NCBI GenBank assembly: GCA_021399445.1
Contig: JAJTUQ010000005.1
Location: forward strand, 5,084,001-5,148,000
Direction: 5' to 3'
DNA from: Xylogone sp. PMI_703
Lineage: Eukaryota > Ascomycota > Leotiomycetes
Length of the DNA: 64,000 bases
This document shows positions 31,615-59,434 of the stretch, piece by piece. The notes under the pieces were generated by a model. That model had not been told where the DNA came from and made no database searches. It saw nothing but the letters and a program-made list of their open reading frames with translations. The translations under genes and the position numbers were made by a program. Within the stretch, counting starts at the first letter, position 1. Each line of letters starts with the position of its first letter.

Positions 31615-33456
31615 TTAAGTCAAGAGGGCGTAAACCGTCAATGCATCCATTCTGACATTTAATCTCGCACTGTTGTCTTGAAATGTCGAGCGATTACTCG
31701 TAAAGTGTGTTTTGTTATCCACATCAATATTGTCTGCGAGTATTGCTGTGCCAATAGCTTGCACACCTAGGAGCATATTATGCTTTATTTTTGCTCGGAT
31801 GATTAGAGCTCGCTCAACTCCAGGGATCCGGTAGACCAGGTCCCCTGGCTGGGCTAGGCTTGACGCAATTCCCATTTTCGAAGTCGTTCCCCCATGCATA
31901 AAACTCTTAATGAGAAAGAGAGAGGCATTCCTAGAAGAGCATAGAATATCGTTAAGAGGCGTCTCGCTTCTGAGTGGTGCCGAAACAAGTTGGTTGGATT
32001 TTATCGCCTCAATCTCGCTCACGTAGCTCTTAGGTAGATAGTAAGAATCATCTGGTCTCCAACCAACATTACTGACGTGACCGAAGCACATCGATGCTAG
32101 CCGGGTCTCATCAGACTCCATAATGGCCCGCATCAATGTATCATTTTCGCGGTGGGCTTCCCCCAGTTCCTCTCGGAAGTTTTCCTGAATTTCGGCAGCC
32201 CACTGATCGGCTTTTTTTGCACTCGAAGTTATATCTACAGTGGAAGGCCCAATCACCGTGATATACCCGACGATATAACTGTGGAGCTTGAACACTCGAG
32301 GATTATCGGGGTTATCCATGGCGAGATCAGGTCGTGACTCGCACGGCTGCAAGGTTTGCGCAAGGGGTTTAAGGTTGGTCCCTTTGAGAAGACGCTCGAT
32401 GAGCCTTCCGAATGGAACAATATCGGCCTCTGCAAGTAGCCCTCGGCGATTCATATATTCCATTGTATCCTTCCAGACCTCGATGAGGGACTTTTCATAG
32501 GCCATAGGAAATCCAGCAGCATCGGCTGCTACACCCACCAAGCCGTATATCCTGTCTCTTGGCTCTTTGCAAAATGCTGTTTGGTGGTCTTCTAGGAGCT
32601 TGCGGAGAGTATGGCTACCAGAGGATTTTCCTTGAACTAGTCGATTCAACCTCAAAGGTCCCTCGCAATGACTGTTATGCTGAGTTACGAGATTGATGAA
32701 GACACCCCAACTTATGGTCGAATTACCGAAGCAAACCTGTTTCTGACGTGCTCGCCCAATCTCTTGGATTGTCCACAGTCTATTCCAATATCCATCAGCG
32801 CACAACTCCCTAACCATCTCTTCTACCTCATTGTTTGTACAGATCTCTGGGCTCTGCTGTGGAGATGATATTCCAGAACTTGATTTGGTGGCAGGTTTCT
32901 GGGCAGTCTCCAATTCCTGCTGCTCGCCTTGGTCCATGACAATGTCATGGCTAGTTTGAGTCTTAAGCCATGACTGATACTTTGAGTACTTCTTTCCCAG
33001 CCAAATAGTAACAATATCCGCCCTGAAGTATATCCATCTCATCATTGTCAAGTGCCTATTACGTTCCGTAATATCATCTTGATTAATGCAAATAGCATCA
33101 ATCCATAAAGGTTTGTCGTTATTCGAGTTTCGGAGATAATCCAGAGCATCCCAGAGATTCTGTCCAACGTAGAACTCAGAACCATCGAGTAAAATCGCCT
33201 TTTTGACAGTCTCATCCCCGGGCATGTATGATAATGCTTTGAATTTCGGCCTTTCAGCAAATTTAGCATGGATTAGTTTGCAGGATAATTGGCAGTCATG
33301 GTCCGTAGCTGGCTCTATTAACACAAGCCTGATAGAGCTTGCATCTGGATCTGCATCTAAGGGCTCGTATTTGAAGACTTTCCGAGGTCGAGTTTCATCG
33401 TCAATGGTTGACATGGATTCAGACCTTGGCCGGCGTCGCGGTTGAATTGTTGCCAT
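31615..33456 (-). CDS. Heterokaryon-incompatibility (HET) domain protein
   Basis: Single exon, 613 aa from the ATG at 33456. The HET domain lies at about residues 65-250: the KALSYMPGDE block, LWIDAICINQDDITERNRHLT, then MMRWIYFRADIVTIWLGKKY, and later YWNRLWTIQEIGRARQ. The first block normally reads ALSYxWGD; here the Trp is replaced (YMPGDE), an unusual change. The C-terminal half includes PRDRIYGLVGVAADAAGF, typical of HET proteins, then a variable region. HET domains trigger cell death or growth arrest when genetically different hyphae fuse. The second Met (residue 15) is an alternative start. It lies at the edge of the repeat-flanked decarboxylase block. Confidence 0.9.
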   Translation of the reverse strand: MATIQPRRRPRSESMSTIDDETRPRKVFKYEPLDADPDASSIRLVLIEPATDHDCQLSCKLIHAKFAERPKFKALSYMPGDETVKKAILLDGSEFYVGQNLWDALDYLRNSNNDKPLWIDAICINQDDITERNRHLTMMRWIYFRADIVTIWLGKKYSKYQSWLKTQTSHDIVMDQGEQQELETAQKPATKSSSGISSPQQSPEICTNNEVEEMVRELCADGYWNRLWTIQEIGRARQKQVCFGNSTISWGVFINLVTQHNSHCEGPLRLNRLVQGKSSGSHTLRKLLEDHQTAFCKEPRDRIYGLVGVAADAAGFPMAYEKSLIEVWKDTMEYMNRRGLLAEADIVPFGRLIERLLKGTNLKPLAQTLQPCESRPDLAMDNPDNPRVFKLHSYIVGYITVIGPSTVDITSSAKKADQWAAEIQENFREELGEAHRENDTLMRAIMESDETRLASMCFGHVSNVGWRPDDSYYLPKSYVSEIEAIKSNQLVSAPLRSETPLNDILCSSRNASLFLIKSFMHGGTTSKMGIASSLAQPGDLVYRIPGVERALIIRAKIKHNMLLGVQAIGTAILADNIDVDNKTHFTSNRSTFQDNSARLNVRMDALTVYALLT

Positions 33457-34176
33457 ATTGCTTATAACAGTGTCGAATTTCTATTTTGATTGAAAGGAAG
33501 ATGCGTCTGCGATAAGACGAAGTGGAGCAGAAACTGCTTCAGTTTGGAAATGGGCTTTATTCACGCAAATAAGCTAATTTTAGGCTAACTGGCCTAGTCG
33601 TAATTTATAGCGACCAAAGAGTCAAGTCTGACGCGTTAACCACTGATACAGTTTTGCTAAGCACACTGCGCCCGCTATGCTATCGTAAAGATGATGTTAA
33701 AGTGAGGTTTGCGTTCTACTTTGGTATTTTCTAGGCAACCGCAGCTTTGGTCGCCCTTATCACGTCCAAAGGCTTGAGTAGAACTATAGCGAGAAAAAAC
33801 TTTGAAATGAAACTCTAAAATTGTTATTCTTCTAATATAGTCTCTCATTTGATCGTATCCTAGCTTTGTGAGGCTCCTCTCGCAAAAGCTCCCTAGAAAT
33901 ATATTCTAAACAAGTGATTCCAAGTTATTGCTATTGCAAAGCATCGTAGAATCTGGTGATACATAGTCCAACACTATGTGAAAATCAGCTAGAACGTTGC
34001 TTCATGTTATGAAGGATGTTAGATGTCGTGAACTACGATATCCTGTCCATTGCGCCTATTATTATTGGAGGGAGGAAACCAAAGCACAAAGCGTGAGATT
34101 ATTGGATATACTCACACTCTTGGGGATGAATATAAGTACACAATAACCAGCCTTTTTAACCAGTCTATTTTTTTTT
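33457..34176. other. Intergenic, AT-rich
   Basis: 0.7 kb upstream of the HET gene and downstream of the C2H2 regulator. Nothing beyond presumed promoter and 3' UTR sequence is visible. Confidence 0.4.
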
Positions 34177-38127: not shown

Positions 38128-39953
38128 ATGGAGAAAGTACTGGATACTGTCGGTAGTCTGCACTTACTCAGTGTCTTCAGCAAAACTGCCAGAAGCAAAG
38201 ATTGGAACACTATTTTCTCCACTGTGAGAACTTCAACTCTCCTCCCTGCAATTGCGATTGCATTTGTAACGTTGCCCGTTATCTGGCTTGTAGCGGACTA
38301 TGCTCGCATTTTGCTGCTTCGACGCAAACTCCCACCAGGACCATTTCCTCTGCCATTATTTGGGAATTACTTTATCGTACCCAAATACAAGCCCTGGGAG
38401 ACTTGGGCTGAGTGGTCCAAGAAATACGACAATCCTATGATCACTGTATGGTCCGGCCACAGACCATATATTCTATGTCACGATGCTTGGACCATTTCAG
38501 ATCTCCTAGAAAAGCGAGCTCATCTGTACTCATCACGACCGAGAATGTATGCTATGGGGGATATGATCGATGCCACGGAAACGAACCAGGTCTGCCTTGT
38601 TTATGGAGATAAGTGGCGTCTTCATAGAAGGCTCATGGTCAGTGACCAGTCAATTGATAAATGTCTAGAGAAGCTGACTAAAGTATTTTCCTGTCTAGCA
38701 TACTGCAGTGGGAAGCCAGGCTGTTCGAGATCACAGATCATTCCAAGGTAATGAGTCCAAAGTCTTGACTAGGGATCTTCTCGAGAATCCTGACAACTTC
38801 GTTTTGGCTATTGAGAGATACTCCTGCTCAGTAGTCTCTATCATTGGCTGGGGTCGACGGATTGACCGTATGAATGACACCGTGGCTCAAGTTGCGCTTA
38901 GCATCATGGAAGGAGTTGATTTGGTAATGCCCTGCTACCACATTGTTGAAGTCATTCCCTGGTTGCTCAAAGTACCAAAATGGATTTATTCCATCCCGTC
39001 AAAATTCAGGGCTGGTGCCAGAATGAGCAAAGGGTACTTCATTGATTTATCTCGCGAAGCAGCTGACAAGGGAGATAACTTCGCAAAGCGTCTGATAACA
39101 AGCCAGCAAGAGCACGGAATGGATGATGGGGAAATTGGAACACTTACTAGCAATCTGATTGGGGGCGGCGTCGACACAACTAGCGGTTCAATTATTAGTT
39201 TCATCCTGGCGATGTGCGTCTGGCCGGAAATCCAGCGAAAAGCCCAAGAAGAGATTGACCGGGTCGTTGGAAAAGAGAGGTCCCCTACATGGGAAGACGA
39301 ACCCTCGCTTCCATATATCACAGCCTGTGTGACAGAGGTCCTTCGCTGGAGGACAGTTACCATCTTAGGAGGGATTCCTCACGCCCCAATCAAGGATGAC
39401 GAGTATAGAGGATATCTGATTCCTGCAGGTACACCCGTTGGAGGCAACGTTTGGGCCATTCATCGCAACCCTCGTGAATTCCCGGCACCAGACTCATTCC
39501 GCCCAGAACGATTCCTGAACGGTCTTGAGCGGCCATATCCAACCAAGAAGGGACATAATGCTTTCGGATGGGGGCGGCGCGTATGCAGTGGCCAGCCGTT
39601 GGCAGAGCAAGGTCTCTTCTTGACAATTGCACGATTGTTGTGGGCCTTTGATATTCTACCAGGACTGGATGAAGACGTGAGTAGAAGGCGATATGTTTGA
39701 TCAATACGTAGTCGTGAAGGATTGGAGCTGACATAGTATTTTCAAATAGGGTAACGAAGTTACGCTGGACATCTTTAAGTACATTTCGTGCGAGAACACG
39801 AGACCGGAGCCGTTTAAAGCACGTTTCATCCCTCGAACAGAACACATCGCGAGATTGATTCGGAAAGAAGCGGAAGTTGCCAGAGAGGAGTTGAGGATAT
39901 ATGATGGAGAGACTAAAGTTACGATGGGTCAAAGGCCTGCAAACTATCATTAA
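38128..39953 (+). CDS. Cytochrome P450 monooxygenase
   Basis: Exons 38128-38637, 38699-39676 and 39750-39953 give 563 aa; phases 0 and 0. An N-terminal membrane anchor (about residues 35-65) is followed by the Pro-rich hinge KLPPGPFPLPLFG. Visible motifs: C-helix WRLHRR; I-helix GGGVDTTSG (oxygen-activation Thr); ExxR in TEVLRWR; PERF; and the heme loop FGWGRRVCSGQPLA with the Cys ligand. The protein appears complete and functional. It resembles the fungal OrdA/O-methylsterigmatocystin oxidoreductase-like group in its heme and I-helix text, but the substrate is unknown. No secondary-metabolite backbone gene lies in the window. It is divergent from the C2H2 regulator. Confidence 0.93.
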
Positions 39954-40764: not shown

Positions 40765-43105
40765 TTACGACCGTTTAGAACGTTTAACAGGAGAGTCTTC
40801 AACTTCTCTCTCCCAACTTGTTAATCCAGCAGACGACTCGATAGTGTAGGGGTGGTTAACACCTAAGATCCGCTTGCGGAGCTGAACACATTCCTTCATC
40901 AGATTAATAGCCTCCATATCTCGACCCATGTCTTTCCACGTAAGAGAAAGATTATTCATGCTCGTTAACGTGTCAGGGTGCTCTTCCCCTAACACTCCTC
41001 TTCTCATCTCTAGCGCTTGCTCCCCTAGCTGTTCTGCTTCTTTCCATCGTCCTTGATTCCAGTATGTCGATGCTAAGTTATCCATACTGATTAGTGTATT
41101 GAGGTGCTCTTCCCCTAGCACTCTCCTACTTATCTCTAGCACTTGTACACCTAGTTGTTCTGCTTCTTTCCATCGTCCTTGAGATTGGTATGTTAATGCT
41201 AAATTATTTATACTAATTAGTGTATCAGGATGCTCTTCCCCTAGTACTCTCTTTCTTATCTCTAGCACTTGTACCCGTAGTTGCTCTGCTTCTTTCCATC
41301 GTCCTTGATTCCAGTATGTTGATGCTAAATTATTCATGCTAATTAGTGTATTGAGGTGCTCTTCCCCTAGCACTCTCCTTCTCATCTCTAGCACTTGTAA
41401 CTGTAATTGTTCTGCTTCATTCCATCGTCCTTGCTCTCCGTATATTAAACCGACCATTGCCATACTGGTCAAGCTATCTTTATGATCTCGGCCAAATAGT
41501 TTTGTGTACATTTCCATCGATTCAACAGCCAATTTTTCAGCGTCAAATGGGGCTCCCTTTCTCAATGCATACCAAGCTGCGTGATATTGTAGTAAAGCCC
41601 ACTCCTTTAGAACATCTTCAGACTCTGGTTGCTGTTCCGCCGCAAATTTTGCATGTGGGAAAAGCGCCTGGCACTTTCCCCAATTTTCAAATTTTCCTGT
41701 CGGAAACTCTGCACACAGGTTCTGAATGAATTTCTTTCTCCATCTTTCCAGCTGGTTATTAAATTCGAGCCATTTTCTCATTGATAGCTGCACAATCCTA
41801 TGCATTTCAAATGTCGATGCCTCTATTGACTTTTTTATGAACTGTTCTCCAGTTATGGAAACAAACGAGTAATTTCTTAGCATAACCAAATCATCTTCAA
41901 ATTCATCAACGTATTTGGTGTCATTACCTGATTCCTGGCTTTGCTGGTTTTGGATAGACTTTTCGGTTTCTAATACATTTCGAACTAAATATTCAGGGAT
42001 CCCCTGCCTATCAAACATGCTCATGAATGACAGTAGGTCAGCTGCTGATGGCCTTGTTTGGCGGATGCGATCAAATGATATGTGCCATGTAATGATAATG
42101 GAGTTCTTAGCCTCATCGTCTCGTCGAAGCTGTCCCGCTTCCATATCTAAAAGGCTTGTTTTCTGATTATCGCTTTCTCGGAACTGTGCGAGGTATCGTT
42201 CTACCGAATAACGAGGCCCTCTTTGAGAGATATATGCCGCAGCTTGAACAATAGCGAGTGGCATAAACTCCAGCTCAGTTACAAGCTCAACAGCATCTTC
42301 GCTTTGACCCTGCTCACCTAGTTTCTTCTTTAATAAGACCAGTGCATCAGGCTTGCCCATGGGGAGGAGCTGAATAATTTCGTTTCTATCTACAAGCTTC
42401 AAAGCTGCTTCTGTGGTTCTACTTGTAATGAGGACTGATCCATTTTCGCCTTGAGGGAGATAATGTTTTAATTTTTTTGAGACCGGGCCTGAATTAGTGC
42501 TCTGGTCGCCAACCAAGAAACTAGCATCATCGACATTGTCAAGGATGAGTATCCACTGCCTTTTGCTGCTGCATAGCCAGCTATACACCAACTCAAATAT
42601 GTTGGCGCCTGGGTTCTGTCGGCCACGTATCTTCGCAAACTCCGCGATCTCCCGATAGCCTTGCTCAAAGCGTGCAGCATTGCTAGCGTGAACCCAAAAA
42701 ATCCATATATTTGGCAGCTGCTCGCGGATTCGGTAGGCACACTCGATGGCGAGTTGTGACTTCCTTCTCAGTTGTTAGCATTCCAAACTACGGTAGAAGA
42801 CATTCTCCGAAGAACACCACACCCACCCAACACCACCGAGGCCGACGAGAGCCGTCCAAGATCCTAGAGTGACACTTCTCTGATGAATTTGATCAAGTAT
42901 ATCTACACGGCCAATAAAGTCAGGGTCGCGACGGAAAGGGACGGTGAATGCTGGGCTCGGTGGAGATTCCGCTCGTTCTGAGCAGGACCCTCGTCAGCAT
43001 CCGCACACTTTAGTTGCCGTTAAACCTACCGGGAATAAAATGAACACCACCATTGATAGTAGCGGCTTGAACGCCGTAGTTATCACTTGCAAACGTAGCA
43101 TTCAT
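40765..43105 (-). CDS. NLR-like receptor: N-terminal amyloid-type motif, NB-ARC, TPR repeats
   Basis: Minus-strand exons 43030-43105, 42827-42977 and 40765-42763 give 741 aa with closed phases. Residues 4-23 read TFASDNYGVQAATINGGVHF, a motif shared with the C-terminus of the divergent neighbour. The NB-ARC domain starts with VPFRRDPDFIGR, has the P-loop GLGGVGKSQ (K77), Walker B ILILDNVDD (about 147-155), SVLITSR, and MPLAIVQAAAYI. About five and a half 42-residue TPR (kinesin light chain type) repeats fill roughly 491-725. There is no N-terminal enzymatic effector domain, only the short motif, which fits receptors that activate a separate effector by templating an amyloid fold. Family role: ligand sensing by the repeats and NTP-driven oligomerisation. 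The second intron (GTGGGT donor) splits the P-loop. Confidence 0.9.
40975..41478 (-). repeat. 126-bp tandem repeats coding TPR units
   Basis: The string GTGCTCTTCCCCTA (or one-base variants) recurs at about 40977, 41103, 41229 and 41355, exactly 126 bp (42 codons) apart. The copies are very similar along their length. They encode the TPR units of the NLR-like receptor. Confidence 0.9.
43031..43105 (-). other. N-terminal amyloid-signalling-type motif of the NLR
   Basis: The first 25 codons include TFASDNYGVQAATINGGVHF. Aligned without gaps to TFGTQNLGVQAYTINGGVNF in the adjacent gene, 14 of 20 positions are identical. The pattern N-x-G-V-Q-A-x-T-I-N-G-G-V resembles HET-s-related amyloid motifs (HRAM); the class name is inferred. 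Confidence 0.75.
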
Positions 43106-43344
43106 AGGATGCCGTAATCTATAGAATCGATGGAGTGGGTGCAAAAGTTGAAGGATGGAATGGGTGTTAAGGCTGGCAGGCTGAATCTGCTCGCATTCAG
43201 CCCCCTGCGAATGTCTAGTCCGAATTGGACCACGTATGCATGCATTTCCTCAGCCTCACACCAAGCACCACTTGCTTCAACGACTCCCTGTGCAACTGAG
43301 GGTGTTGAGTTTGGCCTCGCATCCAATTTTCATCAGTGACCGCA
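43106..43344. promoter_or_regulatory. Compact divergent promoter of NLR and HeLo-like genes
   Basis: Only 239 bp separate the two start codons, which makes coordinated transcription likely, as in other fungal NLR/effector pairs. Confidence 0.5.
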
Positions 43345-44229
43345 ATGGCCGATCCTCTTAGCATCACCGCGAGTGTAGTTGGCATCACGGGCGCCGCTTT
43401 GCAAGCCGTAAGATTTCTTCTGGATGAGTTGCGGGACGTTAATGATGCTCCAAAAACAATCAAACGCTTGGCGGATGATGTGCAATCTGTTGACGCGGCA
43501 CTTAGATTGCTTCAAGGCATAGAGGATAGAGAATGGAATTTACTGGGTACAAGTATAGTAGAGCAGTCAAAGACGACCGTTAGCAACTGTACGCAAGCAT
43601 GCCAAGTCTTTAGGACCGACCTCCAACGGTGGACCAGGCGCTCCCAAGAGGGGAAATTGGCATGGCGAGACCGGACGAAGGTCGGATTTCTTAAGCAAGG
43701 ACAAATCAAGGCTATGTCAGAGCAACTTCAAAATTGCAAACTCACTATCAGCAATGTTGTCAGCATAGCAGTCCTGTAAGTAAATCTAGCCTGTTTCTCG
43801 GTGTAGAGGTTCCGGGTAACCATGTGTTACAGATATAGCTCCGTCCGCCATAGCCACATTACGGAGGAGATTAGGAACTCAATATCCAAGAAGCAAGGCG
43901 AGGTTGAATCTGCCATCGCTACAGCAAATAAGCAGCTGATATTGGTGGAGAGCAAACTGGAAGAGCTTAGCCGCAGCAGCGACAATGATGAAACAGTTGA
44001 ACCAACGGGGAGCAAAGCCGATGTCGCGAAGCAGCTCGAGGAAGGGCGTAAAGCGCTCAATGTGTCGCGGGAGCTGTTGAATGAGTTGCTGGCTAAGGCA
44101 CAGGAAGAAGTTGTTGCAAATGCCGCGGCCAGAAACCAGGGTAGTTCAATCACAATAACATTTGGCACTCAAAATTTGGGTGTTCAAGCTTATACTATTA
44201 ATGGCGGAGTCAATTTTAGAGGACACTAA
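43345..44229 (+). CDS. HeLo-like cell-death effector candidate with C-terminal amyloid-type motif
   Basis: Exons 43345-43775 and 43833-44229 give 275 aa with closed phases; the start is MADPLSITASVVGITGAALQ, the typical opening of the fungal STAND N-terminal/HeLo-like (SesA-type) helical domain, spanning about residues 1-140. A helical, coiled-coil-prone segment (about 145-245) follows. The last 24 residues carry TFGTQNLGVQAYTINGGVNF, nearly the same as the N-terminus of the divergently transcribed NLR. In characterised systems (HET-S/NWD2, HELLF, HELLP) the receptor seeds amyloid folding of such a motif, and the HeLo or HeLo-like domain then targets membranes and kills the cell. That function is inferred here from architecture. 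Only one motif copy is seen, whereas HET-s has two. Confidence 0.85.
44155..44226 (+). other. C-terminal amyloid-signalling-type motif of the effector
   Basis: Last 24 codons before the stop, including TFGTQNLGVQAYTINGGVNF; Gly/Asn/Gln-rich with alternating hydrophobics, 14/20 identical to the NLR N-terminus 1.05 kb away. Confidence 0.75.
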
Positions 44230-45801: not shown

Positions 45802-47329
45802 ATGTTAACAGCTTCCGTCCCGCCGCTCTATATCTGGGGTTTTGCAGCGTGCATAGTAAGTATTAACTATATAAACCCCAGAAGATTCTAATCTGTGTTT
45901 ATAGGCCTGGGTACTACAGTGCCTCTATCGTCTTACATTCCATCCACTAAGCAAATTTCCTGGTCCTAAATTTGCGGCATGCTCACCCTTGTACTTTCTA
46001 TATTGGATCTACCTTGGCCGATTCCCTGAGCAGTGCGAAAGACTGTTTGATGTATACAAGACAGACGTGCTACGCGTCGCTCCGAATCAACTAGTCTTTC
46101 GGAGTCCCCAATCCCTTAAGGATATCGTGAGCCGGAGTGATGTATACCGCGGTGACTTTGCATTGCGAGTAATCGGGTTTGCGGCCACCAATGTGAGCAA
46201 CATCAGAGACCCCGATCAACATAAACGCAAACGCAAATTGATGAATCCCGGCTTCTCCAATGTCACTCTGGCAAAACAGGAGCCGGAGTTGATCCTGCCA
46301 ATCGTGGAGAAGCTGGTTGATAGGATCAGTGCCGCTTGCGGCAGACAGATCAATATGGCAGATTACTTCGATTGTGTGACATCTGATATCATCGGTAGGC
46401 TGTCCTTTGGCGCTGACTTCAAGATGTTGGATGATCCCGAGCACCACGAATTCTTGCATGTCCTCCCAAATGCTTTACGCATGTCTGTTATTGCACAGTG
46501 TATTCCAGAGGTGTACCGTTTTCTATCCTCCATCTATCGATACGGGCCAAGATTTTTGACCCCTAAGACGTTCCGGGGCGTGGTGGATTTTGCCTGCAAG
46601 CATATGCGAGAACGTGCAGCGAGGGACAAGGCTGGAAGTGATATTGAGCAACATGATATAATGAGCATTATAATCAATGGCACAAAGCACCTTACGAACG
46701 AGAATGACAAAATGGATCAGCATGAGATGATGGGTGAAGCTACCACTCTCGTCACTGGAGGCGGGGACACCGTAGCAACAGCTCTCACGGTAACCATGTG
46801 GAATCTGGGACGGCATCCATCCATTTTTAAGGAGTTAACCTCCCAGGTTCGCACAACGTTTACGTCCTATGATGAGATTACTTCCAAAGCAGTTGCAGCC
46901 AAGATTCCCCTAGTAGACGCGGTGCTTAACGAGTCAATGCGTCTTAATCCCGTCTTGCCTGGACCAATGTGGCGCCGCACTGATCATCCCATCACTGTTG
47001 ACAATCAGACCGTGCCCGCTGGCACCGAACTCGGAGTGGTGCGGCTGTCCGTCTTCCACAATAAGGAAGCATTCCATAAGCCAGACCAGTTCATTCCCAT
47101 GCGATGGATAGAAAACATGGGCGACAATCTCGAGGCATTTCAGCCCTTTGGCCTTGGTCCGCGGACGTGTATAGGCCGGCATATTGCTATGGTCGAGATG
47201 CGTCTTATTCTAACAAAACTGCTCTGGAAATTTGACTGGGAGTTGCTCAATGAGGAGTATGATAACCCGGAGTATGTGGTGCTTTACCGGTCGCCATTAT
47301 GGATGAAGGCGAAGTCTCGCTCTGACTAA
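45802..47329 (+). CDS. Cytochrome P450 monooxygenase (short N-terminal anchor)
   Basis: Exons 45802-45855 and 45905-47329 (49-nt intron, GTAAGT...TAG, phase 0) give 492 aa. The first exon supplies the start of the membrane anchor (MLTASVPPLYIWGFAACI), followed by the hinge FHPLSKFPGPK, typical of many fungal secondary-metabolism P450s. Visible motifs: I-helix LVTGGGDTVATAL, ExxR in NESMRLNPV, PMRW, and the heme loop FGLGPRTCIGRHIA with the Cys ligand. It is complete at normal length. The substrate is unknown. No terpene cyclase, PKS or NRPS gene is nearby, so it may be an orphan or part of a cluster outside the window. Confidence 0.93.
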
Positions 47330-53958: not shown

Positions 53959-55338
53959 TTAAACTGTGAGGTTAACCGTCTCAGTGTCTGCTGCTTCCTT
54001 ATCCTTGGTGATTGCGCCTTGCCCGACAGTTTCCGAAGAAGGCTTTTTTAAACCTGAGTCTACTGAATCCACCGCCTCCATCGATGTGTCAGCCTCCAAG
54101 GAGTACTCCCAACCCCAGGCTTCCGTCTCCATGGAGCTGTCCAAATACGCTTGGGCCTGGTCCCCGAATCCGTCGTCGTCGTCGTCGTCATAATCTAGAT
54201 CCAGTTGGTTCACGTCCGCGGCCCCAGCCATTCCAACGATCCTAGCTAAGAACCATTGCATTTCTAACAACTTAAGCGACGGTAGTGGTCTTTCCTTAGG
54301 ATCGTCGGTAGTCATTAGGATCTGGTCTCCCGACTTGATGTTTCCTCTCCCACCACTGTAGGCCACCTCATTATCTTTAATTAGGTCTGGTGTCTCTGGC
54401 GGCAAAGTGGACGGTGGCACCTTTTCTCCTCCTGTATGCTGTGGTTGCCAGAAAAATTGCAGGGTCAGAGTTTTGCTATCCTTGGATAATGACACTGGAA
54501 ATAACGCAAACCTCCCATTATCCCAAGCTCTATGTAAACTTGGTTGTAAGCAAATTAGGTTTATAGATGACTCTCCCTTAGGGCCACCATCTTCATTGAA
54601 GATCTCAGCCTTCCAGCTCTTAACGGTGTCCTGCGGCCAGAACATGCCAAGCATTTCAAATAAATGTTCTCGCCGGGTGCGATGCTTCGCCTTGGAAAGG
54701 CAGAAGGGAAAAATATGAGCCACGTCGAACTCTCCATGGTACCCGGATAATGCGCATCTATAGCCATCTCGAGCCTTTGCCTATACATCAATTAGAGGGA
54801 TTTTCCATGGTAGGTCCTATGGCAACGTGGAATATCATACCGCCTCCTTGGCAGGTGTCGATCGGTGTCCTCCTGCCGGCCCACGGGCCATGGTAGGCGA
54901 ACTGCCTAGGCCTGCGAGAGATGGATGAACTTTCATGGGAGTCACTTCAACTGATCCGATACTGCCACGGTCCGAATCAAATCTTTGAGCCCTTATAGGA
55001 TAGATTTGAGTGGTTAGTCTGCTTCAAGAAGCTCCGTGATAATATGCAAGATCTGCCTTACACGAGCGACACATCGTCGCTATGCCTATCCTATGCGCCA
55101 AGAGCATTGCTACCGCTGAGGGGCCTTTCTCTGCACACTCTACGGCCACCCTCAGTTCCTTCGTGTTGCAAAACATCAATGCAGCCCATAGCTGGGCTGG
55201 TGCCGTCTCTACTCTCTTTTGGAGTCTCTCAAGTAACGCCTTTCTAACTACCGTTGGTTCATTCTTCTGCTCTATCGGCCAACTTGATGATCCAGCCTCT
55301 GCCACAGATGCCGTAGTCATGGACCTGGTATTAACCAT
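53959..55338 (-). CDS. HNH-type (HNH_2) fungal protein
   Basis: Minus-strand exons 55062-55338, 54946-54991, 54841-54901 and 53959-54780 give 401 aa, with all phases closing; introns are 70, 44 and 60 nt. The HNH-like core is ARDGYRCALSGYHGEFDVAHIFPF (about residues 131-155), then FEMLGMFWPQDTVKSWKAEIF and NLICLQPSLHRAWDNGRFALFPV, where the His/Asn/His-type residues of this fungal family lie. A run of Asp (54169-54187 encodes it by GTC repeats on the plus strand) and an acidic tail follow. Family members are often called HNH nuclease-like; their role in fungi is not established, but they are abundant in accessory regions. A paralogue lies at 59435-60097. The two small middle exons are inferred. 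Confidence 0.7.
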
Positions 55339-56403: not shown

Positions 56404-58494
56404 TCAGACCAATGATAAAGGCACGTAGTCAATCGAGGTTCCCATGAGAAGCTGACCATCCATGATACCATGGGCATAACATTCCCCTATAAGCATGAAT
56501 GAGGATATATCTATTGTTGGCCGCAGGATAAAAGGGGTCCGGCCATTTTCTAGGACCCAAACCTCGTCGCCGGGCATGGAAGATACGTGGCCGTAACCAA
56601 TATCATTTTCCGTCGTCGTGAATAACACACGGTTGTGAAGGACAGCAGCTGCCTCAAACCTTTGCATCGGTTCCAAGCTGATGTATTGCTTGAGTTCCTG
56701 ATAGGCGTTTCCACTATATGCCACCTCTAGACGATTCCGCCAGATACCACCCTCGGATACGTCGGGTAGTAGCATTTCTGCTTTGTCTTGCTTAGATAGC
56801 TGTGTGAGTTCTTTACAAATAGTAGATAATTGCTCTGGATAGCTTTCACTAGACGTTCGCAGAATGAAGAGGTACTTCAGGATCCAGTCGTGGAAGCAAG
56901 CTCCAAGTTCTTTCGGTGCAGGTCTGGAATAAAGCTCCGAGTCTCCGACAATAGTTCTCCAAAGTGCCTGGACTCGATCCTGCCCATCTCTCAATACTAG
57001 TTGTAAGGTACTGCATATATCTATTATAGAAGAGAGTATCTTTTCGGAGTCATTAGAGGCAAAGTCAATACTACAAGTAGCGAGCTTCCCTAGACGGCGG
57101 CCCCTTAGATGAAGTTTGGAGCCCTGAACATATCTCTCTGCAGGTACAGCTTTATCGCAAAAAGCAGTATTGTATTGCGGAATCCCTGGTCGCCTGCGGT
57201 TAAGCCCAAGTCGTTTATCCATTACGTATCCTGCCATTCCATAGAGATCTGGTACCCAAGATGGAAGCCCTGAGATGGAGCGACGATTAGGATCTTGCAC
57301 CAACGAGAGTATAGACAGGTCAGGAACTGTCTCAATACATATTTTTATCACCCTCTGATACACCTCAACAGCACTGATGTTATAGTTAGCAGTTAACGTA
57401 TGTGAGTCTCGTAACTCTGGCATCTGGTCAACAATATTCTCGACGATCCCGAGGATGCTATAGATCATGTCCCTTGCATCTGAGCACTGGAGCATGCAGC
57501 TCCTATACAAGATCTCTACCCAAACAGCGCCAATACCAAATGAATTGTATGAGGCTATACATTCGGATTTCCAGCTCCTGGGGTCTGACAGTACCGATTC
57601 TATGAATTCGCGAGCTAGAAGGGCCCTGCCGGGCTGGTATCCAGTTGCCATATAGCGCCTGAGATATTGGCCCCAACGTGATATGCGGAAGTACTTCACG
57701 AGGAATCCCAATTTGTACCAATCGAGCCTTTGATCCCCGCACAAGACTTCAATGCTGTTGGCGAGTGCCGTCTCTTGCAGAGTCCAGCGGCGGTAGAACC
57801 AAGATCTCCGAAAGAACTGCGTCCAAGCGAACCACACATCTAGCATGGTCACCTTGAGCCCGAATTCCTCCAAATATGAGTCATCATTCGGATCATGGCT
57901 TTGAAGGTCCGCCTCAGTTAATTTGCCTTCCGTAACCAAGTCAAATATAGGACCAGCAAAGTTGTTTTGTATTTCTAACGCGGCAAGAGAATCCTCCCCA
58001 CCTCTCCCAAGCCACACGATGACTTCTGCTGCGTTGCTGTAGATTTTGGGCATCAAAGCTACCTGACTGGATCGCTCCGAGACATTAAGTTGGTCGATAC
58101 AAAGACGGTCAATCCAGATATACCCTTGCTCCCCACTTGCTCTCAATTGCAAAAGTGCCTCGAACAAGTTCCGGCCTACTCGAATAAGCTCTCCGTTACA
58201 TTGAACCATAGAATCTTCCGAGTACCAGTCAAACGCACGCTCCTGAAACTCTATGTCCGAAGGGAATGGCTGGCCGATGGGATTGAACACCTGGTCTGGA
58301 GGGAAAGGGTTGCCCCAGGTGTATGACAGTGCTTTGTAGGTAGGACATCTGGCTAAAGCGAAGGTCTCTATGTTGCAAGTGACTCGATCTTCGTGGTCAT
58401 TATCGTTTCGGACTTTCAGGAGGCGAATGGATGGCTGCATACCATCGAGTGGAGGGAGCGGATGCCCAGTGCTGCTGATATTACTTGGATCCAT
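56404..58494 (-). CDS. Heterokaryon-incompatibility (HET) domain protein
   Basis: Single exon, 696 aa, from the ATG at 58494 (MDPSNISSTGHPLPPLDGMQ); the frame is open for 12 codons further upstream but without ATG. The HET domain lies at about 50-250: YKALSYTWGNPFP, then after a longer than usual insert GYIWIDRLCIDQLNVSERSSQV, MPKIYSNAAEVIVWLGRGGEDS and WFYRRWTLQETALANSIEVLCG. The conserved SYTWG and IWID.LCI blocks are intact, unlike in the HET gene at 31.6 kb. Later ARDMIYSILGIVENI and DLSILSLVQDPNRRSISGLPSWVPDLYG are classic HET-protein text. It is expected to act in self/non-self recognition and cell death. It sits between two HNH-type genes. Confidence 0.93.
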   Translation of the reverse strand: MDPSNISSTGHPLPPLDGMQPSIRLLKVRNDNDHEDRVTCNIETFALARCPTYKALSYTWGNPFPPDQVFNPIGQPFPSDIEFQERAFDWYSEDSMVQCNGELIRVGRNLFEALLQLRASGEQGYIWIDRLCIDQLNVSERSSQVALMPKIYSNAAEVIVWLGRGGEDSLAALEIQNNFAGPIFDLVTEGKLTEADLQSHDPNDDSYLEEFGLKVTMLDVWFAWTQFFRRSWFYRRWTLQETALANSIEVLCGDQRLDWYKLGFLVKYFRISRWGQYLRRYMATGYQPGRALLAREFIESVLSDPRSWKSECIASYNSFGIGAVWVEILYRSCMLQCSDARDMIYSILGIVENIVDQMPELRDSHTLTANYNISAVEVYQRVIKICIETVPDLSILSLVQDPNRRSISGLPSWVPDLYGMAGYVMDKRLGLNRRRPGIPQYNTAFCDKAVPAERYVQGSKLHLRGRRLGKLATCSIDFASNDSEKILSSIIDICSTLQLVLRDGQDRVQALWRTIVGDSELYSRPAPKELGACFHDWILKYLFILRTSSESYPEQLSTICKELTQLSKQDKAEMLLPDVSEGGIWRNRLEVAYSGNAYQELKQYISLEPMQRFEAAAVLHNRVLFTTTENDIGYGHVSSMPGDEVWVLENGRTPFILRPTIDISSFMLIGECYAHGIMDGQLLMGTSIDYVPLSLV

Positions 58495-59434
58495 GGTAGG
58501 AGATAAAGAGAGCCCGAAGGGATAGACCAACTAGGATATGTCTTGACACCCTATCATGCAGAAAGTGAGAGAGAAAAAGATCAATTGCTCAAGGCATATT
58601 CAAGTCGATCATGACGAGGACTTGTTGGCGACTTGGTTCAAAGCGCTGGTTTAGTTCACGAGCTGAGCATTGATGGAAGTCGGTTGTCGACTGTTTTAGG
58701 ATAACACTGTGGACGATCTCGGCAGTCCCACTAGTGGCTATCAAAGACTTAAAAGTTTCTACATTTGCCTTTCTGATAAGACAAATTGAGGTTTTATTCA
58801 GAGTAAATCGTAATGAAAATAATCGAATGGATTTTAATAGCCTCATTTACATATCATTTCTTTACACAAGAATTCGAATTATCAAGTATTTAAGGGTATG
58901 AATCAGATGTCTGTGACAAATCACGGATGCCTGATTCTTGTTTCAAGCCTGAGGTATTAACTATTGCCAAGTCACCAAGCTCCGCCGCCAAGTGCAGCAA
59001 GCTCTCGCCAAGGAATGCTGGGGTCACAAGTGAATCGTCTCAGCGCATCCACTTACTGGAAGCCTCAAAAATTCACTATGATACAACCACAGAATTTCGT
59101 TGCGATTCATGGAGGCCGTGACTAGATTCACTTCTCACAACATCTTATTTAATCCCTTATCTCCTCTCCTTCCTGCGAGAAATCTCTAATTCTACACCAA
59201 TCTCCAGACAACTTTTGTAGGTGTTGATGGCTGCACCAGAGTATTCTGCCTGGCATTGCTGGTGCACCGCTCCGATTCTTGCAATGAGAGCACCAGTTAT
59301 CACCGAATTCACGACGACGATGTACAATTTAATGGAGCCTTCGAGGGAAAAAAGAGGAGAGCTTAAAAGACCGCTGAGAAAGTAAGATCAACAGAACTTT
59401 AGATAGGTAGGAATGGTGTACTCACTTGTCCTAG
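58495..59434. other. Intergenic upstream of HET and HNH genes
   Basis: 0.9 kb between divergent genes. Probably contains the 5' exon(s) of the HNH gene: an ATG frame runs from 59227 to a GTAAGA donor near 59382, but its phase does not match the downstream exon. A minus frame at 58589-58846 has no recognised family. Confidence 0.35.

What the first reader, a model, noticed from the sequence alone, without database searches (positions are those of the whole stretch)
43031..44229. Divergent NLR / HeLo-like effector pair sharing a 20-residue amyloid-type motif
Seen: two genes with starts 239 bp apart. The NLR has no N-terminal effector domain but opens with TFASDNYGVQAATINGGVHF. The neighbour has a HeLo-like/SesA-type helical domain and ends with TFGTQNLGVQAYTINGGVNF. 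14 of 20 positions match without gaps, at opposite protein ends and in otherwise unrelated proteins. Established: NWD2/HET-S and HELLF- or HELLP-type pairs use exactly this layout, where the receptor motif templates amyloid folding of the effector and triggers cell death. Inferred: this is such a regulated-cell-death pair. The motif looks HRAM-like but may be a distinct subclass, with one copy instead of the two in HET-s.
Basis: partly seen in the sequence, partly recalled or inferred. Interest (0 to 1): 0.92.

Follow-up and report, generated by a model that had tools for sequence, protein, structure and literature searches.

The report
Fungal amyloid-signalling receptor and effector pair
Two neighbouring genes of the fungus Xylogone look like a known kind of cell-suicide switch, in which an immune receptor passes an amyloid shape to a membrane-attacking partner; what is unusual is that both partners lack the same normally conserved core glycine.

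Summary
Two divergent genes start 240 bp apart (43105, 43345). The NLR opens with TFASDNYGVQAATINGGVHF and the PF17111 (HeLo-like) protein ends with TFGTQNLGVQAYTINGGVNF: 14 of 20 identical; the best of 1000 shuffles gave 10. Amyloid templating of an effector by its neighbouring receptor is well supported by homology. HRAM is not: this is the HELLP/PNT1 (PP, RHIM-like) kind. The effector is 42% identical end to end to a Podospora HELLP, the receptor is motif-NB-ARC-TPR like PNT1, and intron phases agree. The motif is kept in 120 of 126 listed effectors of 240 aa or more and 114 of 120 listed receptors; 15 effector-receptor pairs appear to share a contig. New is a detail: both Xylogone partners lack the second glycine of GxQxG, the only such case among the 15 pairs, and Arachnomyces has Q to E in both. 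Cognate motifs match better than non-cognate ones (15 of 20,000 shuffles as good; 0.088 without these two pairs), which is suggestive of partner-matched amyloid cores, no more. No amyloid or cell-death activity was tested.

The parts
43030..43105 (-). NLR exon 1: start codon and receptor amyloid-type motif MNA-TFASDNYGVQAATINGGVHF-IP (motif 43096-43037)
   Evidence: identical N-terminus in the deposited protein P0121
42978..43029 (-). NLR intron 1 (52 bp, phase 1), directly after the motif; pnt1 of Podospora has a phase-1 intron at nt 95-148 of its ORF
   Evidence: PMC7885112 passage
42827..42977 (-). NLR exon 2: linker and start of the NB-ARC domain to the P-loop
42764..42826 (-). NLR intron 2 (63 bp) inside the P-loop codons (GLGGVG^KSQ); no counterpart in Podospora pnt1, which has one intron
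   Evidence: PMC7885112 passage
40765..42763 (-). NLR exon 3: rest of NB-ARC (24.2 bits, cut-off 23.5), DUF7779 (27.0 bits), TPR array (TPR_10 256 bits)
40977..41433 (-). TPR tandem array at DNA level, period 126 bp, 3.6 copies, 85% matches
43106..43344 (.). 239-bp intergenic stretch between the two divergent start codons
43345..43775 (+). Effector exon 1: PF17111 (HeLo-like) domain
43776..43832 (+). Effector intron (57 bp, phase 2, nt 432-488 of the ORF; Podospora hellp: 47 bp at 429-475, same phase)
   Evidence: PMC7885112 passage
43833..44229 (+). Effector exon 2: end of the helical domain, linker, C-terminal motif, stop
44158..44217 (+). Effector amyloid-type motif TFGTQNLGVQAYTINGGVNF; predicted without structure (pLDDT under 50, residues 246-275)

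Best explanation
An HELLP/PNT1-type regulated-cell-death pair that signals through a motif derived from the PP (RHIM-like) amyloid motif. Proposed course: (1) an unknown ligand binds the TPR array of the NLR; (2) the NB-ARC domain oligomerises; (3) the clustered N-terminal 20-residue motifs fold into an amyloid; (4) this seeds the homologous C-terminal motif of the neighbour; (5) the neighbour's HeLo-like helical domain moves to the membrane and kills the cell. Shown here: gene structures, domains, shared motif, homology to HELLP and the PNT1 layout, conservation of the motif in both partners in many listed relatives, shared contigs, correlated divergence of the partners. Inferred from published work on Podospora and Chaetomium: every functional step.
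For: Motif match beyond chance and kept despite codon divergence. PF17111 effector, NB-ARC and TPR receptor. 42% identity, 60.5% similarity over 276 columns, E 3e-69, to P0275, a Podospora pseudocomata protein of 271 aa that fits the start and end oligonucleotides printed for P. anserina HELLP and differs in one residue at the residue-214 one. Same intron phases as hellp and pnt1. Motif in 120 of 126 effectors of 240 aa or more and 114 of 120 receptors. 15 pairs on 14 contigs of equal length, three of them (besides Xylogone) with consecutive locus tags. Effector and NB-ARC distances correlate, r 0.75, 0 of 5000 permutations as high. Profiles made without the Xylogone sequences hit both Xylogone motifs: effector profile 23.3 and 17.9 bits, receptor profile 16.1 and 7.8 bits for receptor and effector. 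Published: PNT1(1-31) and HELLP(214-271) form prions, convert each other, and trigger HELLP (PMC7885112, passages).
Against: The strict PP core NxGxQxGxN is met only in its first half in both partners, and the second glycine of the RHIM-shared GxQxG is missing; its effect on amyloid formation is unknown. The effector motif scores low (7.8 bits) with the receptor profile. Receptor relatives were fetched with a query that contained the motif, which favours motif-bearing hits. Structure search did not tie the effector to MLKL or HeLo. The second NLR intron has no counterpart in pnt1. No transcript or functional data.
Confidence: 0.87

Rival explanations
1. An HRAM (HET-s-related) pair with a single repeat.
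For: Same gene layout and motif positions; similar length (20 against 21 residues); single HRAM copies are known in some effectors (PMC9815663, section 24).
Against: Two repeats 6-18 residues apart characterise the 155 analysed HRAM effectors (PMC4518210, passages); the effector profile finds one motif in this effector. Whole-protein homology and receptor layout point to HELLP/PNT1.
Confidence: 0.05
2. A decaying pair: loss of the core glycine in both motifs has made the pathway silent, and the genes are on their way out.
For: A core residue conserved in 109 of 120 effectors and 103 of 114 receptors is lost in both. The genome also holds two effector copies with stops and an NLR relic.
Against: Both frames are open, the P-loop is intact after splicing, the two motifs match each other better than either matches any other listed partner (14 against at most 13 and 12), and shared residues survive codon change.
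Confidence: 0.06
3. The 14 of 20 match is a recent copy or gene conversion between neighbouring genes and carries no signalling meaning.
For: The genes are neighbours, and 14 of 20 is above the mean of the other 14 pairs (11.6).
Against: 8 of 14 identical residues differ in codon; the motif is found at both places in many listed relatives from several classes of fungi.
Confidence: 0.02

Closest known systems
HELLP/PNT1 of Podospora anserina and HELLP-SBP-PNT1 of Chaetomium globosum (PP motif; PMC7885112, passages)
   Same: Neighbouring genes, PF17111-type effector of about 271-278 aa with one C-terminal motif, NB-ARC-TPR receptor with N-terminal motif, intron position and phase, end-to-end effector homology (42% identity to P0275).
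   Different: Motif lacks the second glycine of GxQxG and the GxN half of the strict PP core in both partners; one more NLR intron; no SBP-like lipase seen nearby; within-pair motif identity 70% against the published 32-48%.
NWD2/HET-S and FNT1/HELLF (HRAM systems)
   Same: Receptor-effector gene pair, motif at the receptor N-terminus and effector C-terminus, amyloid templating as mechanism.
   Different: Two repeats in the effector and another motif class; NWD2 has NACHT and WD repeats (PMC7885112, passages).
RHIM of mammalian RIPK1/RIPK3
   Same: Core G-x-Q-x of the motif; PP and RHIM prions partly cross-seed in Podospora (PMC7885112, abstract and passages).
   Different: Different proteins around the motif; the second glycine of the RHIM core is absent here. 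RHIM letters were not compared here.

Membership tests
HELLP-type effector | PF17111 (HeLo-like) domain, about 270 aa, homologous end to end to HELLP | tested here: met
   83 bits for PF17111; 42% identity over 276 columns to P0275
HELLP-type effector | Single C-terminal amyloid motif shared with an adjacent NLR | tested here: met
   Residues 253-272; 14 of 20 to the NLR; one domain hit in the effector with the effector profile
HELLP-type effector | Intron position of hellp | tested here: met
   nt 432-488 here, 429-475 in P. anserina, both phase 2
PNT1-type NLR | N-terminal motif, NB-ARC, TPR repeats | tested here: met
   NB-ARC only just over its cut-off (24.2 against 23.5)
PP motif | Strict pseudopalindromic core NxGxQxGxN | tested here: not met
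   NxGxQ met, GxN not met, in both partners. Only 1 of 84 effector and 45 of 114 receptor motifs among the relatives meet it strictly; 54 and 46 have NxGxQxGxxN. The pair is filed by whole-protein homology and layout, its motif as PP-derived.
PP motif | GxQxG core shared with RHIM | tested here: not met
   GVQAY and GVQAA; glycine present in 109 of 120 effectors and 103 of 114 receptors
PP motif | Forms amyloid or prion and activates cell death | not testable with these tools
   needs peptides and cells
HRAM | Motif repeated twice in the effector, 6-18 residues apart | tested here: not met
   one motif in the effector; definition from PMC4518210, passages, which also says 'generally (but not always)' twice
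HRAM | Match to HRAM1-5 sequence profiles | not tested
   no HRAM alignment was held
Sigma motif | About 40 residues built of three-fold repeats | tested here: not met
   20-residue unrepeated motif; definition from PMC5485727 section 5
PUASM | FxGxGxQxxGxGxF with a PNP_UDP effector domain | tested here: not met
   PF17111 effector, pattern not matched by either 20-mer; definition from PMC9815663
HeLo/MLKL four-helix fold | Structural match to MLKL or HeLo | tested here: inconclusive

The most novel reading that the evidence does not exclude
PP-type receptor-effector pairs carry a partner-specific amyloid code: core residues change together in both proteins, so each lineage keeps a private seeding channel. 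Xylogone (second glycine of GxQxG lost in both) and Arachnomyces (Q to E in both) would be two natural cases in which residues thought basic to the RHIM-like core were replaced in receptor and effector alike while signalling was kept, with motif positions 9, 13 and 18 as the main carriers of the code.
Probability: 0.35. Interest if true: 0.62.

Novelty: new variant of a known kind. Interest (0 to 1): 0.4.

Why it matters
It adds a HELLP/PNT1-type death pathway from a leotiomycete and shows the kind over several classes of fungi. If the joint loss of a core residue is functional, natural pairs like this one would show which residues of a RHIM-like amyloid set partner specificity and which are dispensable, a question shared with mammalian necroptosis.

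Tried and rejected
HRAM, sigma and PUASM were considered and set aside (membership test). Gene conversion as cause of the match was set aside on codon differences. A third partner (SBP-like lipase): none of the 10 open frames scanned around the pair has a lipase domain, and a 28-residue motif query found only the two window copies in the genome; that query also missed the motif of the two dead effector copies, so it does not exclude a third partner. Other PF17111 places of the genome: 17 matches, of which the 10 best were given loci (several are exons of one gene); the motif was seen only at the window gene. Fold search gave no useful match; a PDB sequence search with the effector alignment gave two chance-level hits, E 0.17 and 0.95. 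A loose scan for second motif copies flagged 17 of 120 effectors; by my reading these are overlaps or helical stretches without NxGxQ, save that P0279's call is unclear. Statistics against my reading: cognate matching falls to 0.088 of shuffles when Xylogone and Arachnomyces are both left out, 0.0079 without Xylogone, 0.0119 without Arachnomyces; with 14 pairs it was 0.013, and 0.09 without Xylogone. Shuffles ignore relatedness.

Full report
WHAT IS THERE. The window lies in a 50.1-Mb fungal genome, contig 21 of 5,548,043 bases. The effector is identical to a protein of Xylogone sp. PMI_703 on a contig of that length; Xylogone is a leotiomycete. The minus-strand NLR starts at 43105, the plus-strand effector at 43345. 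Spliced models give 741 and 275 aa. The first NLR intron follows the motif; the second sits inside the P-loop codons, and splicing gives GLGGVGKSQ. The deposited NLR agrees except for one missing 42-residue TPR. It was not resolved.

THE SHARED MOTIF. TFGTQNLGVQAYTINGGVNF (effector, residues 253-272) and TFASDNYGVQAATINGGVHF (receptor, residues 4-23) agree at 14 of 20 places; the best of 1000 shuffled protein pairs reached 10. Eight of the 14 shared residues use different codons, so the match is kept at protein level. A degenerate DNA pattern of the core has exact matches at these two places only in the genome, none for the reversed control.

WHAT FAMILY. Pfam gives PF17111 for the effector, NB-ARC and TPR for the receptor. 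A search with the effector listed 120 of 139 relatives; one with P0077 listed 120 of 191, 61 of them new. Of these 181 sequences 126 have 240 aa or more, and 120 of those carry the motif near the C-terminus; the six without are P0063, P0105, P0257, P0282, P0283 and P0285, of which P0285 ends in a related but divergent stretch. The motif was located by a hand-made score, so the exact counts depend on it. P0275, from Podospora pseudocomata, has the length of P. anserina HELLP (271 aa), agrees with the start and end oligonucleotides printed for HELLP in PMC7885112 and differs in one residue at the residue-214 one. The window effector is 42% identical and 60.5% similar to it over 276 columns; the paper gives 56% similarity between the two experimentally studied HELLPs. 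Podospora hellp has one 47-bp intron at nt 429-475 of its ORF and pnt1 one of 54 bp at nt 95-148 (passages). Here the effector intron is at 432-488 and the first NLR intron at 77-128: same phases, 2 and 1 by my arithmetic. The receptor search (region 1-110, so partly selected for the motif) listed 120 of 626, and 114 of the 120 open with the motif. A review names PNT1 after PP-NB-ARC-TPR (PMC12881547, passage). So by homology and layout this is an HELLP/PNT1-type pair, not an HRAM pair. Its motif is PP-derived but does not meet the strict PP core (NxGxQxGxN) or the full GxQxG.

LINKAGE. In some searches fifteen effector-receptor pairs on 14 contigs share the contig length to the base, Xylogone included. 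Besides Xylogone, three have consecutive locus tags (Coleophoma BP6252_09458/09459 by tag of P0042 and P0165, Trapelia MMC30_009216/009217, Arachnomyces FQN54_008954/008955). For the rest a shared contig is inferred and adjacency was not checked. Only 120 receptors were visible, so 15 is a lower bound, and how often the genes are unlinked is unknown. Effector-domain and NB-ARC distances over the 15 pairs correlate (r 0.75, 0 of 5000 permutations as high), as expected if the partners are inherited together or simply follow the species tree.

WHAT IS UNUSUAL. The second glycine of GxQxG is present in 109 of 120 effectors and 103 of 114 receptors. Xylogone lacks it in both partners (GVQAY, GVQAA), the only such case among 15 pairs; in three other pairs the receptor alone lacks it. 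Arachnomyces has E for the central Q in both partners. Each Xylogone motif finds its best match among the listed partners in its own cognate (14; next 13 and 12). Over 15 pairs cognate motifs share 11.8 of 20 residues, non-cognate ones 10.7; 15 of 20,000 shuffles did as well (20 of 20,000 with another seed). The excess lies mainly at motif positions 9, 13 and 18 (0.47 against 0.24, 0.47 against 0.22, 0.80 against 0.59). Without Xylogone and Arachnomyces the fraction is 0.088, so the evidence is suggestive only; shuffles ignore relatedness and the pairs were gathered mostly through Xylogone queries. Concerted evolution of receptor and effector motifs is already published for HRAM (PMC4518210, abstract and passages). 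I saw no such count for PP in what I read; the searches were made, and I read outlines, sections or passages of six papers (PMC9815663, PMC5485727, PMC7885112, PMC4518210, PMC12881547, PMC8086366), the others only as listings. A search for Xylogone together with NLR found no paper.

HOW IT WORKS. By homology: ligand at the TPRs, NB-ARC oligomerisation, amyloid folding of the receptor motif, templating of the effector motif (low-confidence, unstructured stretch in the model, residues 246-275), membrane attack by the HeLo-like domain. In Podospora, PNT1(1-31) forms prions that convert the HELLP motif, and foci-bearing PNT1(1-31) strains give a barrage with full-length HELLP, which the paper marks as data not shown (PMC7885112, passages). 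None of this was tested for Xylogone. Published within-cluster PP identities are 32-48%; here it is 70% over 20 residues, a shorter stretch, so the figures are not strictly comparable.

SURROUNDINGS. P450 genes lie on both sides (frames 38699-39700 and 45905-47329), and HET-domain frames about 7 kb and 12 kb away. Elsewhere in the genome there are two effector copies with stops, 99.7% identical to each other over the 3.3 kb compared, and an NLR relic. The dead effector copies keep GLQIG, which fits loss of the glycine in the line of the window gene.

Noticed in passing
L013 (G000:C3:63541-67056) and L014 (G000:C7:257079-260492): Two further copies of the effector gene, with stops in the matched frames, 99.7% identical to each other over 3269 bases (all that was compared), so probably a recent segmental duplication of an already broken copy; both keep the motif core GLQIG.
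   Followed up: partly
G000:C21:2626206-2626810 (-) (L034, L060): Relic of a PNT1-like NLR: an NB-ARC piece 66% identical to P0131 with one stop, and a linker-like piece with two stops; no motif seen.
   Followed up: partly
window 31615-33480 (-) and 56404-58530 (-): Two frames with HET (heterokaryon incompatibility) domains flank the pair at about 7 and 12 kb.
   Followed up: no
window 40977-41433 (-): TPR array of the NLR is a 126-bp tandem repeat (85% matches); the deposited protein model omits one unit.
   Followed up: partly
names of the effector relatives: UniRef and Pfam names call these proteins azaphilone pigment biosynthesis cluster protein L (PigL_N), which hides their likely cell-death role.
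   Followed up: no
window 53959-54780 (-): A frame with an HNH_2 endonuclease domain.
   Followed up: no
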